Below are positions 52,233 through 58,200 of a stretch of DNA of 64,000 bases, piece after piece. The translations under genes and the position numbers were made by a program. Every line of letters starts with the position of its first letter. The stretch's first letter is position 1. The DNA is from Catenulispora sp. MAP5-51 (GTDB taxonomy: Bacteria > Actinomycetota > Actinomycetes > Streptomycetales > Catenulisporaceae), in the NCBI RefSeq assembly GCF_041261205.1, contig NZ_JBGCCH010000030.1, positions 1 through 64,000 on the forward strand, given 5' to 3'. Below the pieces are notes generated by a model. The model saw only the letters and a program-made list of their open reading frames with translations. It was not told the origin of the DNA and ran no database searches.

Positions 52233-55200
52233 TCACGCGGAGCCGTCGACCGGTGCCTCGCCCGCGAACGCGGCGCGCACCAGCGCGTCGACGTCCATGT
52301 CCTCGATCGCCGAACGCTCCTCCGGCTCCGACGGCTGCTCGGGGAACAGCTCGGTCAGCAGATGGTCGGCCAGGCGCGCCGGGTCGGCGTGGTCGAAGAT
52401 GAGGGTGGCGGACAGGCGCAGGCCGGTGGCTGGGGCGAGGCTGTTGCGCAGTTGGAGCGCGGCCAGGGAGTCGAGCCCGAGGTCGGTGAATCCGGTCGCG
52501 GTATGGATCTGCGCGGGATCCTCGTAGCCGAGTACGGCGGCGGTGTGGGCACGGACCAGGTCAAGCAGAGCCCGCCGCCGTTCCTTGGGAGACAGCGGCG
52601 CAAGGCGTGCCGCAAGGTTCTCCGGCGCGGGTTCGGTCATCTGCTGCGCCCGGGCCGTCGTCGTCCGTACAGTGAACCCGCGCAGCAGAGCGGGCAGCTC
52701 AGGCCGTTCCCGCAGCGCGGCCGCGTTCAGGCGCACCGGGACGAGCACGCTCTCCTCGGCGTCCAGGGCGGCGTCGAACAGGATGAGTCCTTCGGCCGGG
52801 GTCAGGGCCTCGATGCCTTCGCGGGCGAGCCGGTCGAGGTCGACGGCGTCGTCACTGCCCTGCCACGGCCCCCAGGCCAGGGAAATGGCGCTCAGTCCTC
52901 GGGCACGCCGGTGTTCGGCCAGCGCGTCGAGGAAGCGGTTCGCGGCGGCATAGTTCGCCTGACCGGCCGTGAGCACCAGGCCTCCGACCGAGGAGTAGAG
53001 CACGAACGCGGCCAGGTCCAGATCGGCGGTGAGTTCGTGGAGGTGCCAGGCCGCGTCCGCCTTGGCCCGCAGGACGCGGTCGAACTGAGCGGAGCTCAGC
53101 TTCTGGAGCACCGCGCCGTCCATCACCCCGGCCGCGTGCACGACGGCGGTGAGCGGGTGCTGCCCGGGGATCTGCCCGAGCATTCCGCGCAGCGCTTCGC
53201 GGTCGGCCACATCACACGCGGCGAAGGTGACGTGGGCTCCGAGCCCGCGGAGTTCGGCGTCCAGTTCCTGCGCGCCGGGGGCCTGCGCTCCCCGTCGGCC
53301 GACGAGCAGCAGGTGCCGGACCCCGTGGACCGTCACCAGGTGCCGGGCCAGCGTCGCGCCGAGCAGTCCGGTGCCTCCGGTGATCAGGACAGTACTCTGC
53401 GGATCCCAGGTGGGGGCCTTGCCACCGGGTGCGATGCGTCGCAGCCTCGGCACGCGAACCTCGCCGGCGCGGATGGCGGCCTCGGGTTCGCCGGTGGCGA
53501 CGGCGGCGGCGAGGCTGTGCCGGGAGGCTTCCGTCCCGTCTGTGTCTATCAGCTGGATCCGGTCCGGGTGCTCGGCTTGTGCGGCGCGGACAAGTCCCCA
53601 CAGCGGTGCGTGAACCAGATCAGGGCTCTGCCCCGGCTCCGTGGCGACCGCGCCGTGGGTCAGGATCACGAGTCGGTCGTCCGCGTCCCGTGGTCCGGCC
53701 AGCCATGACCGCAGTGATTCCAGGTTGTCCAGCAGGGCGTGGCGCACGGCCCCGGGAACGTCATCGGTCGGTCCGGGAACCGCGCCGCAGTCGAGCAGGG
53801 TGACGCCTTCCGGGAGTTCCGCGGTGACAGCGTCCGCGATGGGCAGGGGATTCCACGCGATCTGATAGAGGTGCCGGGCCCCACTCGCGCCATCGGTCGG
53901 AACCGGTCGGGTCACCAACTCCTCAACGTGTGCCACCGGCGCGCCCGAGGAGTCGGCGATCCAGAGTTCAGCAGCGTTGTCCCGCGCTGGCGTCTTACGT
54001 GCGCGCACTCGCAACGCCGTCGGGCCCCTGCCGTAGAGGGTGACGCCCTTCCACGCAAACGGGATCGTGGCTTCGGTCAACGCCGCGGGGCCTCCGGCCA
54101 GGAAGTCCATGGCGCCGAGTGCCGAGTCGAGCAGGGCGGGGTGTATGCCGTACGACGCAGCATCGCCGACCGAGTCCGTCGGCGGGGCGTTCTCGGCGAA
54201 GACCTCATCTCCACGGCGCCACACCGCCCGCAGTCCCTGGAACGCCGGGCCGTACCCGAAACCGAGTGCGGCCAGGTCCTCGTAGACCCCTGACAGGTCG
54301 AGGCGATCGGCGTCAGCCGGCGGCCAGGCACCCAGGTCGGAGAGAGCAGAGGAACCGCCGACCGCCAGAGTGCCGCTCGCGTGCAGGACCCATTCGGCAC
54401 TGGTTCGAGACGGTTCATCAGGACGCCCGTACACCGAGATCCCGCGGCGCCCATCCTGGTCCGGGCCGCCGACCACGATCCGGACCGTGACCGCCCCGTC
54501 GCCGGGAAGGGACATCGGCGTGTGCTGAATCAGCTCCTCGATCACGGCGCACCCGACCTCCGCGCCGGCGCGCAGCGCGAGTTCCACGAAGGCGGTCCCC
54601 GGCAGCAGCGTGCGGCCGAGCAGCACGTGGTCGGCGAGCCAGGGCCGGCGCTCGGCCGACAGACTCCCGGTGAACAGCACCTCATCGCTGCCGGGCAGGT
54701 CGACGACGGCGCCGAGCAACGGGTGCTCGGCCGAGACCAGGCCGGCCGCGCCGACGTCGCCCTGCGCGGGAGTGGCCCGGAGCCAGTACTCCTTGCGCTG
54801 GAAGGCGTAGGTGGGCAGGTCGATCAGGGTCCCGCCGGAGCAGAACGGGGCAAAGTCCACCGGAACGCCGTGGACGTGCAGCGTCGCGGCGGCTCGGGTC
54901 AACGCGCCGGTCCCGGTCTCGTCACGATGCAGGGTGCCGGTGACCACCGCCGGGTGGTCGAGCTCGTCCAGGGTTTCCCGCACACTCGCGGTCAGCACCG
55001 GGTGCGCGCTGATCTCGACGAACGCGCCGAATCCGGCCTGGGCCAGAGTACGGACGGCGACGGCGAAGCGGCCGGACTCAGACTCGGGCTCGCGCAGGTT
55101 GGCCTGCCAGTACCGGCCGTCCACCTCGGGACCGTCCAGCCAGGCGCCGGTGAGGTTGGAGAACATCGGGACGGCGCGCTCCGTCGGGGTGACGGGTACG

Positions 55201-58200
55201 TCTTCGGCAGGCTCCGCGCCGACCGCCCGGCTGTGAGCCGCGATGATCCGCGCTCCGTCCGCCAGGCAGAGGATTCCAGCAACGCAGGCAGCTGCCACCT
55301 CACCGTACGAGTGGCCCACGACCGCGTCGGGACGCACGCCGTGCTCCTCCCACAGCGCCGCAAGGGCGACCATGACAGCCCACCGCACCGGCTGGACCAC
55401 CTCTGGCCGGTCCAGCGGCGGCGCCCCGTCGATGCCGCGCAGCACGTCGGCGACCGACCACCCCACGTGGGCGGCGAGCGCCGCGTCGCACTCCGCCAGC
55501 CGCGCGGCGAACGGTGCGGAGGTGTCGAGCAGGCCGGCCGCCGTGCCGGTCCACTGGCCGCTCTGTCCGGGGAAGACGAACACTGTACCGCCGGTCACGT
55601 CCACGGCTCCGGTCACGCACTGCGCGCTGGTGCCGCCGTCAGCCAGGGCTCGAAGGCCCGCGGTCAGTTGTTTCCGGTCGGAGCCGAGCACGACGGCACG
55701 GTGCTCGAAGGACGACCGGCTGACGGCGAGGGTGAACGCGACGTCGGCAGGACGGGCGTCGGGATGGCCGTCGAGATGCGCGGCCAGGCGCCCGGCCTGG
55801 GCCCGCAGCGCGGCCTCCGAGCGGGCCGAGACGAGCCAGGGCACTGGATCCGTACCCTGATCACGCCGACCGCCCTCATCGCCCACGCCGCCTACGCCGC
55901 CTACGATCTCCGGCGCGGAGGGCGCCGCCTCCAGGGCGCCACCCTCTTCCAGGATCACGTGGGCGTTGGTGCCGCTGATCCCGAAGGAGGACACCCCCGC
56001 CCGGCGCGGACGTCCGGTGGCCGGCCACGCCCGGCGCCCGGTCAGCAGCGACACCGCGCCGGCCGACCAGTCCACGTGCGGTGACGGCGCGTCCGCGTGC
56101 AGGCTGCGCGGCAGCACGCCGTGCCGTAGTGCCTGCACCATCTTGATCACTCCGGCGACGCCGCTGGCCGCCTGCGTGTGGCCGATGTTGGTCTTCACCG
56201 AGCCGAGCCACAGCGGACGCCCCGGCTCGCGCCCCTGACCATAGGCGGCCAGCAGCGCCCGCGCTTCGATCGGGTCGCCGAGCCGGGTGCCGGAGCCGTG
56301 TGCCTCGACGGCGTCCACCTCCCAGGGCTCCAGCCCCGCCGCGGCCAACGCGGCCCCGATCACCCGTTCCTGGGCCGGGCCGCTGGGGGCGGTCAGGCCG
56401 TTGGAGGCGCCGTCCTGGTTGACGGCGCTGCCGCGCACGACGGCCAGGACCGGATGGCCGTTGCGCCGTGCGTCCGAGAGCCGTTCGAGCAGCACCACTC
56501 CGGCGCCCTCGGCCCAGCCCACACCGTCGGCGGAGGAGGAGAAGGACTTGGAGCGGCCGTCCGGTGCGAGCATCTGCTGCCGGCTGGAGTCGACGAACAG
56601 GTCGGGCGTCGAGAGCACGGTGACGCCGCCGGCCAGCGCCAGGCCGCACTCCCCCGCGCGCAGCGACTGGGCGGCCAGGTGGATGGTCACCAGGGACGAG
56701 GAGCACGCGGTGTCCACGGTGATCGACGGGCCCTGCAGTCCCAGCAGGTAGGAGACGCGTCCGGACACGATCGAGCCGGAGCTGCCGTTGGCCAGGTATG
56801 GGAGCACGTCCGGCGAGGGCTGCTTGACCCGGCTGCCGTAGTCGTCGTACATGGCGCCCGCGAAGACGCCGGTCAGCGTGGACCGCAGCGATCGCGGGTC
56901 GATGCGGGCCCGCTCGATCGCTTCCCAGGACACTTCGAGCAGGAGCCGCTGCTGCGGGTCCATCGCCAGGGCCTCGCGCGGGCCGAGGCCGAAGAAGGCC
57001 GGGTCGAACTCGGCGGCACGGTGCAGGAATCCGCCTTCGCGGGTGTAGGTCTTGCCCGGGCGGCCGGGTTCGGGGTCGTAGATGCCCCCGACGTCCCAGC
57101 CGCGGTTGACGGGGAATCCGGACACGGTGTCGCTCTCGTCCATCAGCAGCCGCCAGAGCGCTTCCGGCGTCTCGATGTCTCCGGGATAGCGGCAGGCCAT
57201 GCCGATGACGGCGATCGGCTCGTCTCGGGTAGTCACGGCCGCAGCGGTACTCGTGGCCGGAGTCGCAGTCCCGACCGGCTCGGGGGCGCCGAACAGCGAG
57301 TGCTTGATGAAGTCGGCGACCGAGCGCGTGGTCGGATGGTCGAACACAAGCGTGGCCGGGAGCGTGGCCCCGGTCGCCGCGCTGAGCGCGTTACGCAGTT
57401 CGATCGCCGTCAGCGAGTCGATGCCGAGTTCGCGGAACGCGCGGTCCGCGTCGATCGCGCCGGAGGTGTGGCCGAGGGTCGCGGCGACGTGCGTGCGGAC
57501 CAGGTCCAGCAGGTGCCGGTGGCCGTCGGACTCGCTCAGCCGGGCCAGCCGGCTCCTCAGGTCGGCGGCGGGGCACGAAGTGGCGGCCGCAGGTCGCGGG
57601 GGCGCGGTGAGGAAGCCGCGCAGCAGCGCCGGAACCCGGTCGGTGCGGGCGCGCAGGGCGGCCGTGTCGATCGGCAGCGGTACGAGCACGGGCTCACGGC
57701 TCCCGAGCGCGGCATCCAGGGACCTCAGACCCTGGCGGACGGCTATCGCGGGCATGCCGAGGCGGGCCATGCGGTGCAGGTCGTCCTCGCGCAGCGCGCC
57801 GCCGAGACCGGTGTCGTGGGCCCACAGGCCCCAGCCGAGCGCGGTGGCCGGCAGGCCGAGGCTGTGCCGCCGCGCCGCCAAGCCGTCGAGGAAGGCGTTG
57901 GCGGCAGCGTAGTCCCCCTGCCCGGCGGCCAGGACCGTGCCGCCGGCCGAGGAGAAGAGCACGAACGCGGCGAGGTCGAGGCCGCGGGTCAGCTCGTGCA
58001 GATGCCAGGCGGCGTCGGCCTTCGGCCCGAACACCTCCGCGAGCCGGGCGGCGTCCAGCGAGCCGGTCAGTCCGCCCCCGGCCACCCCCGCGGCGTGCAG
58101 GACGGCGGTCAGCGGGTGTCCGCCGGGGACGGAGGCGAGCACGCCGGCCAGGGCCGCGCGGTCGGCGACATCGCACGCGGCGATCGTCACGCGCGCGCCG

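What the first reader, a model, noticed from the sequence alone, without database searches (positions are those of the whole stretch)
54950..55600. In-frame deletion removes the catalytic His region of the last AT in PKS5
Seen: the AT keeps the nucleophile motif (GHSYGE) but jumps from AHSRA straight to a segment equivalent to the region after YASH. Compared with PKS3, about 80 residues are lost, including the small subdomain and the His motif that sets substrate choice. The entry motif is also altered (GQSGQW instead of GQGSQW). The KS, DH, KR and ACP of the module look intact. Inferred: the AT cannot load its ACP, so the module is skipped, used as a pass-through, or loaded by another AT.
Basis: partly seen in the sequence, partly recalled or inferred. 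Interest (0 to 1): 0.72.

Follow-up and report, generated by a model that had tools for sequence, protein, structure and literature searches.

The report
Polyketide acyltransferase stripped to its core
One building-block-loading domain of an antibiotic-type assembly line has lost the small half of its structure and with it the catalytic histidine, while the rest of the module is kept; similar cuts turn up in several other bacterial assembly lines, so such modules are probably loaded by another enzyme or bypassed.

Summary
The last AT of the minus-strand PKS gene (window 54,819-55,583) is 262 aa long, against 336-349 aa for the seven other complete ATs in the window, and lacks one block: the small ferredoxin-like subdomain with the YASH/HAFH histidine. 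It is not an assembly error: a 96%-identical orthologue in a related genome has the same deletion, and its nucleophile motif has decayed further (GDSCGE).

It is not a one-off. I found 13 such core-only ATs in nine PKS module lineages, in the window's genus and in one other genus of the order. The tree needs at least four changes. Seven of nine lineages have lost the nucleophilic Ser; none of the 60 full-length ATs compared has. Many core residues are kept while active-site residues decay, and AlphaFold folds the remaining core confidently.

Best reading: a dead AT kept as structural scaffold, with the ACP loaded by another malonyl transferase (FabD or a neighbouring AT). As the lost AT is of the methylmalonyl-type half of the tree, this would switch the extender to malonyl. 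Pass-through remains possible; nothing here decides between them. Dead and 'truncated' ATs are in print (irumamycin, pepstatin); recurrent excision of this subdomain I did not see described in the listings and passages examined.

The parts
54819..55583 (-). core-only AT of module 3: large alpha/beta subdomain present, small ferredoxin-like subdomain absent
55185..55238 (-). deletion junction [18 protein letters not shown]: residues after the GHSxGE helix run straight into the segment that follows the YASH helix
55299..55316 (-). GHSYGE nucleophile motif (GDSCGE in the G008 orthologue)
55551..55574 (-). altered entry motif FPGQSGQW (FPGQGSQW in intact methylmalonyl-type ATs)
55959..57227 (-). 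KS of module 3, DTACSSS / EAHGSGT / KTNIGH
55593..55958 (-). KS-AT linker domain, retained
54726..54815 (-). post-AT linker ([12 protein letters not shown]), retained
53901..54725 (-). DH of module 3; [11 protein letters not shown] present, DxxxH altered to DSALG
52689..53876 (-). KR of module 3, TGGTGLLG and NYAAAN present
52359..52583 (-). ACP of module 3 (DLGLDSL), 0 amino-acid changes in 75 codons against the orthologue
59838..60800 (-). intact malonyl-type AT of module 2 on the same polypeptide (GHSIGE, HAFHS): candidate loader of ACP3
52233..64000 (-). 3' part of the PKS gene (N-terminal ACP, then modules 1-3); runs on to at most C30:68,795 beyond the window

Best explanation
Module 3 carries a catalytically dead AT from which the whole small subdomain has been excised (shown by sequence; loss of activity inferred). 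The large core is kept because it sits between the KS-AT linker and the post-AT linker that packs back on the KS (retention and predicted fold shown; scaffold role inferred). KS and ACP are intact, and ACP3 is most likely charged in trans with malonyl, by FabD or by a malonyl-type AT of modules 1-2 on the same homodimer, so the module still extends the chain (inferred). As the lost AT belongs to the methylmalonyl-type half of the tree, its loss would switch the unit added here from methylmalonyl to malonyl (inferred).
For: Same deletion in a second genome. 13 core-only ATs in nine lineages; the tree needs 5 changes, at least 4 forced by starred branches, and 0% of 200 bootstrap trees have one change. 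Over nine lineage representatives, 14 core columns are kept in 9 of 9 (L35, F42, C49, L53, V87, L91, G99, G107, G111, E112, A115, G120, A234, G240, numbered on the kept columns of the reference row), while the nucleophile Ser is kept in 2 of 9, each Gln of GQGxQ in 4 of 9 and the Gln of VQP in 3 of 9; 60 of 60 intact ATs in that table have the Ser. dN/dS of the remnant is 0.243 against 0.232 for the other eight ATs of the cluster (Fisher p 1.0). AlphaFold pLDDT 84.1, pTM 0.84; Foldseek's best 50 are PKS modules, KS-AT didomains and AT domains, TMq 0.70-0.82. ACP3: 0 nonsynonymous changes in 75 codons. Precedents, passages only: AT6-null DEBS rescued by the S. coelicolor malonyl transacylase gave 2-desmethyl-6dEB (PMC6164871); irumamycin AT12 lacks its Ser and loading of ACP12 by AT11 was proposed (PMC11672594); PepC of the pepstatin cluster is said to have a truncated AT domain and yet is proposed to install two malonyl units in a product that is made (PMC12081711).
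Against: No product is known to me for this cluster, so extension by module 3 is not shown. The module's DH lacks the DxxxH His. Module 3 DH+KR (0.515 vs 0.352, p 0.28) and KS+ACP (0.225 vs 0.107, p 0.17) are nominally less constrained than in the other modules. No extender-type discrete AT was found with the cluster; but the PF00698 scan also missed the VinK-like gene on C16 that one search found, so a divergent one could be missed. Not only active-site columns decay: of 30 columns conserved in both AT types the nine representatives keep 72% on average, with losses at L84 (3 of 9), V131 (4 of 9) and L204 (5 of 9), all reference-row numbers. The dN/dS of the remnant rests on 12 nonsynonymous and 18 synonymous changes. 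No intact AT was modelled as a control for the AlphaFold result. The pepstatin passages do not say what its AT has lost.
Confidence: 0.6

Rival explanations
1. Pass-through: the module is no longer charged; KS3 receives the chain and hands it to ACP3, which passes it on without extension, so the product is one unit shorter than the module count. The core-only AT is kept only because the polypeptide cannot be cut without harm.
For: DxxxH of the module's DH is lost in both genomes; DH+KR and KS+ACP dN/dS nominally raised. Nine modules less one would give a 20-membered ring by simple count, the ring size I recall for vicenistatin, whose starter pathway resembles this one (ring size recalled, and the count assumes that all five PKS genes form one line).
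Against: The differences in constraint are not significant (p 0.28 and 0.17); KR, KS and ACP motifs are present and ACP3 is unchanged. In three other lineages core-only ATs sit in KSQ-type loading modules (G001/G006, G116/G290, G212), where pass-through makes little sense.
Confidence: 0.25
2. Decay of the whole cluster: module 3 is on its way to pseudogenisation and makes nothing.
For: The active-site motif differs between the two genomes (GHSYGE / GDSCGE). Some domains of other modules also have high dN/dS on small counts (P0002 module 2: KS 0.90, AT 0.63, DH 1.00; P0003 KR 0.73).
Against: Frames of the five PKS genes are open in both genomes, and pooled dN/dS over the other eight modules is 0.11 (KS+ACP), 0.23 (AT) and 0.35 (DH+KR). 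Pairs of genomes keep core-only ATs in four lineages.
Confidence: 0.08
3. The core-only AT still transfers malonyl with Ser alone or with a His from elsewhere.
For: Ser and GxSxG kept in the window copy and in G001/G006.
Against: Catalytic His absent and His in place of the substrate Arg; the orthologue has GDSCGE; seven of nine lineages have no Ser.
Confidence: 0.05
4. Sequencing or assembly error.
For: PKS repeats are prone to collapse (general knowledge).
Against: Same in-frame deletion in a second genome, with sequence differences around it.
Confidence: 0.02

Closest known systems
cis-AT type I PKS AT domain (PF00698; KS-AT structures 8ee0, 2hg4, 7s6b)
   Same: KS-AT linker, large AT subdomain, post-AT linker, position in the module
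   Different: small subdomain with the catalytic His is absent; His in place of the substrate Arg
Inactive AT of irumamycin module 12 (PMC11672594, passages read)
   Same: dead AT in a module of a cis-AT assembly line; loading by the neighbouring AT was proposed there
   Different: the passages report loss of Ser and of motif similarity; whether the small subdomain is missing I could not see
PepC of the pepstatin cluster (PMC12081711, passages read)
   Same: KS-AT-ACP module described as having a truncated AT domain and proposed to add malonyl; related clusters have a PKS without AT
   Different: a single stand-alone module; the text does not say what part of the AT is missing
trans-AT PKS modules (AT-less, loaded by a discrete AT)
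   Same: module without a working AT of its own; in one Bacillus trans-AT cluster truncated AT domains were suggested as binding sites for the acting AT (PMC5964695, passage read)
   Different: here half of a cis-type AT is retained among intact cis-ATs, and no extender trans-AT gene was found with the cluster
Engineered AT-null DEBS module 6 rescued by malonyl-CoA:ACP transacylase (PMC6164871, passages read)
   Same: would work like it if loading is in trans: a methylmalonyl module becomes a malonyl one
   Different: man-made; here a natural excision
Vicenistatin-type beta-amino-acid macrolactam clusters (PMC11284099, passages read)
   Same: VinK-like discrete acyltransferase, methylaspartate-mutase-like protein, PLP decarboxylase, adenylation enzymes, iminopeptidase-like hydrolase, loading ACP at the PKS N-terminus
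   Different: module 3 with a core-only AT; the passages I read of the review do not describe one

Membership tests
Functional PKS acyltransferase (PF00698) | GHSxGE nucleophile Ser | tested here: met
   GHSYGE in the window; GDSCGE in the orthologue
Functional PKS acyltransferase (PF00698) | catalytic His in the YASH/HAFH motif, small subdomain | tested here: not met
   profile positions 121-211 missing; alignment
Functional PKS acyltransferase (PF00698) | carboxylate-binding Arg after GHSxGE | tested here: not met
   His at the aligned place, IIAAHSRAV vs VVALRAQAL; role of the Arg recalled
Functional PKS acyltransferase (PF00698) | acyl transfer activity | not testable with these tools
   needs an in vitro assay
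cis-AT PKS KS-AT core architecture | KS, KS-AT linker, AT core and post-AT linker in order, core predicted to fold | tested here: met
   (the KS was not part of the model)
trans-AT PKS | no AT domain in the module | tested here: not met
   262-aa AT remnant present
trans-AT PKS | discrete extender-type AT encoded with the cluster | tested here: inconclusive
   on C30 the PF00698 scan shows one discrete AT, VinK-like; the scan missed another VinK-like gene on C16, so a divergent AT could be missed
Vicenistatin-type macrolactam cluster | VinK-like acyltransferase and beta-amino-acid starter genes | tested here: met
   the family matches of the other genes lie partly below curated cut-offs
Vicenistatin-type macrolactam cluster | product is a beta-amino-acid macrolactam | not testable with these tools
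   no product known to me

The most novel reading that the evidence does not exclude
Excision of the ferredoxin-like subdomain is a recurrent natural route by which actinobacterial assembly lines turn a methylmalonyl AT into a scaffold, perhaps even a docking site, and hand the module to malonyl loading in trans. It would be a natural extender-unit switch by deletion and a halfway stage between cis-AT and AT-less modules.
Probability: 0.3. Interest if true: 0.75.

Novelty: new variant of a known kind. Interest (0 to 1): 0.52.

Why it matters
If core-only ATs are scaffolds in working modules, product prediction from AT motifs is wrong at those modules, and nature supplies ready-made AT-null modules with clean boundaries for engineering extender choice in trans. 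They would also be an observable intermediate for how AT-less modules arise. If instead they are pass-through modules, they mark where module count and product size part company.

Tried and rejected
An association with VinK-type macrolactam clusters looked strong at first: both core-only ATs of the window's genome, and that of G116, lie on a contig with a VinK-like gene. It did not hold generally: in G368 and G212 the VinK-like genes lie megabases away, in G311 on another contig; G001 and G006 gave no VinK match and G099 is not among the 54 genomes that did. For G290 and G125 the two lie on different contigs and cannot be judged.

A first comparison with modules 1-2 alone suggested relaxed DH and KR in module 3 (0.47 vs 0.1-0.2). 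With all nine modules the difference is not significant (p 0.28), so I dropped it as evidence for pass-through.

That all 13 core-only ATs fall in the methylmalonyl-type half of the tree (named by motif; not all its members show YASH) is partly a search effect, since the profiles were built from such ATs. The PF00698 scans of four genomes (158 match rows, 12 of them the two halves of six core-only ATs) list no other such split match, but other partial matches in them (for example G006:C12:133,987, profile 137-286) were not examined.

Depth: one search covered 60 relatives (up to 39 candidates scored each); one search covered 391 genomes of the order (6 each) and showed nine full-span matches; one search covered 396 genomes of the phylum (6 each) and showed only the window genome's two; one search scored 46 in each of 52 genomes of the order with a VinK match (of 54; G000 and G008 left out) and showed four cases that one search had not. 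So counts are lower bounds. Row lists were cut by the tool. The plasmid search listed 15 of 363 records, all as two separate pieces spanning a full-length AT.

Of 100 AT hits I left out of the tree non-truncated hits under 300 aa, the L037 duplicates, four iterative-type L008 hits, L014 and L015 (87 rows left), then 12 intact rows over 93% identical to another (75 rows). The table also leaves out the L013 and L038 rows and takes one row per truncated lineage. T_G368, T_G125 and T_G311 have long branches and uncertain places; T_G125, T_G368 and G116/G290 group together (94/91), and the window and C16 copies group at 95/38, so some lineages may share one origin. The tool counts gains and losses alike; I read changes as deletions because regain of the subdomain seems unlikely.

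The pepstatin case raised my odds for trans-loading from 0.55 to 0.6 and lowered pass-through from 0.30 to 0.25. Paper searches were mostly off topic.
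Full report
What is there. The finding lies on the minus strand in a PKS gene within the open frame C30:52,236-68,795 (C30 numbering equals window numbering). The protein is an N-terminal ACP followed by three KS-AT-DH-KR-ACP modules. The third AT matches PF00698 in two pieces, 1-120 and 212-317. Aligned with paralogues and with solved KS-AT structures, it goes from the helix after GHSYGE straight to the segment after the YASH helix. It is 262 aa long; the other seven complete ATs in the window are 336-349 aa. The block lost is the small ferredoxin-like subdomain (domain anatomy recalled), with the catalytic His; at the place of the carboxylate-binding Arg stands His.

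It is real. G008 holds an orthologous gene, 96% identical over the AT, with the same deletion. There the motif is GDSCGE. The G004 contig of 10,467,782 bases has the length I recall for Catenulispora acidiphila, so the genus is probably Catenulispora; that is recall, not a tool result.

It recurs. A second core-only AT (GHCQGE) lies in another cluster of the same genome, C16:56,363-57,235, with a counterpart in G008:C6. G001 and G006 carry one in a KSQ-type loading module (DTGQSS); the apparent counterparts in G000, G004 and G008 are full length, 336-338 aa. Outside the genus: G116/G290 (KSQ-type loading, GDAEGE), G099 (first module after what reads as a CoA-ligase-ACP, GHAVGE), G368 (GQGNGE), G125 (GQGVGE), G212 (KSQ-type loading, GHGPGE) and G311 (last module before what reads as a TE, GLAEGE). 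That makes 13 sequences in nine lineages. The N-terminal end of the deletion is nearly constant, just after the helix that follows GHSxGE; the C-terminal end varies, and G311 has lost more. In G212 the domain is 319 aa because of a low-complexity stretch further on.

Origins. On a tree built without the deleted columns (75 rows, 260 columns) the 13 rows need 5 changes, at least 4 forced by starred branches, and 0% of 200 bootstrap trees have one change. The tool counts gains and losses together; I take regain of the subdomain as unlikely. The G212 copy pairs with the intact AT of the next module of its own protein, the G099 copy with an intact Pseudonocardia acaciae AT (L034), and the G001/G006 copies sit in a set with four intact ATs, all starred. 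All 13 fall in a starred set of 32 rows, 13 truncated and 19 intact, of methylmalonyl type by motif; the search bias behind this is told under Tried and rejected.

Function lost, core kept. Of the columns conserved in the 19 intact ATs of that half, 14 are kept in 9 of 9 lineage representatives (among them the two Gly and the Glu of GxxxGE), whereas the Ser is kept in 2 of 9, each Gln of GQGxQ in 4 of 9, the Gln of VQP in 3 of 9 and the Val of the PV(R/A)F motif in 1 of 9. All 60 intact rows of that table (19 + 41) keep the Ser. Decay is not confined to the active site: over 30 columns conserved in both AT types the mean kept is 72%. AlphaFold, given the linker, the core and the post-AT linker with 13 intact ATs as alignment, returns pLDDT 84.1 and pTM 0.84; I ran no control on an intact AT. 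Foldseek's best matches are PKS modules and KS-AT or AT structures, TMq 0.70-0.82 in the 50 rows shown.

Constraint. Between G000 and G008 the core-only AT has dN/dS 0.243 against 0.232 for the eight other ATs in the cluster. ACP3 has no amino-acid change. DH+KR of module 3 are nominally but not significantly less constrained (0.515 vs 0.352, p 0.28), as are KS+ACP (0.225 vs 0.107, p 0.17). Counts are small, and single domains of other modules reach 0.6-1.2.

Mechanism. A review describes the post-AT linker as wrapping around AT and KS-AT linker to contact the KS (PMC11907408, passages). The small subdomain is an insertion in the core (recalled), so it can be cut out without disturbing that path; removing the whole AT could not leave it intact. 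That would explain why the core stays (inferred). With the AT dead, ACP3 needs another loader. The genome-wide PF00698 scan shows a FabD-type protein (C5:203,039; 151.5 bits to the fabD model, below its curated cut-off) and, beside the cluster, a discrete AT that matches PDB chain 5czc at 2.5e-118, which I recall as VinK. The review says VinK moves the dipeptidyl starter to the loading ACP (PMC11284099, passages). So no dedicated extender loader was found with the cluster, with the caveat that the scan missed the VinK-like gene on C16 that one search found; FabD or the malonyl ATs of modules 1-2 are the candidates. Rescue of an AT-null module by a malonyl transacylase has been done (PMC6164871, passages), loading by a neighbouring AT was proposed for irumamycin (PMC11672594, passages), and PepC of the pepstatin cluster, said to have a truncated AT domain, is proposed to install malonyl units in a product that is made (PMC12081711, passages).

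Not decided. Pass-through is the main rival. The product is unknown to me, and my one search for a Catenulispora macrolactam listed four papers, none with such a compound in its title or in the abstract start shown.

In print. Searches brought up a dead AT (irumamycin) and two uses of 'truncated AT domain': PepC, and a Bacillus trans-AT cluster where such remnants were suggested as binding sites for the acting AT (PMC5964695, passage). In the listings and passages seen I found no description of excised small subdomains as a recurrent thing. The library lacks most subscription journals, and supplements could not be read.

Noticed in passing
window 28,703-45,768: Three AT regions and two DH-KR regions of the plus-strand PKS genes have strong negative coding-strand GC skew (-0.22 to -0.25), and the three AT regions are 83-85% identical at DNA level, reminiscent of GRINS repeats (definition recalled; GRINS named in a passage); the core-only AT has no such skew (0.006).
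   Followed up: partly
window 20,992-27,309 and 32,659-49,728: Two modules (P0004 and the last of P0002) hold over 900 residues between AT and ACP with two KR-like stretches each by reading, so look like tandem-KR modules.
   Followed up: no
C30:63,918-64,742 (window end and beyond) and window 28,703-30,130: The DH of module 1 has no nucleotide change in 275 codons between G000 and G008, while the AT of P0003 has dS 0.195 against 0.02-0.09 for the other ATs: uneven divergence suggests gene conversion.
   Followed up: no
L001 7,796-19,805: Starter genes beside the PKS: methylaspartate-mutase-E-like protein, PLP decarboxylase, a double adenylation protein, iminopeptidase-like hydrolase, VinK-like acyltransferase, and an extra 1094-aa adenylation protein of NRPS type.
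   Followed up: partly
L051/L052 (G116:C19:28,701-39,058): The frame with the KSQ-type module and core-only AT ends inside a DH, and what reads as the other half of a DH starts a separate frame on the opposite strand: possibly a split DH.
   Followed up: no
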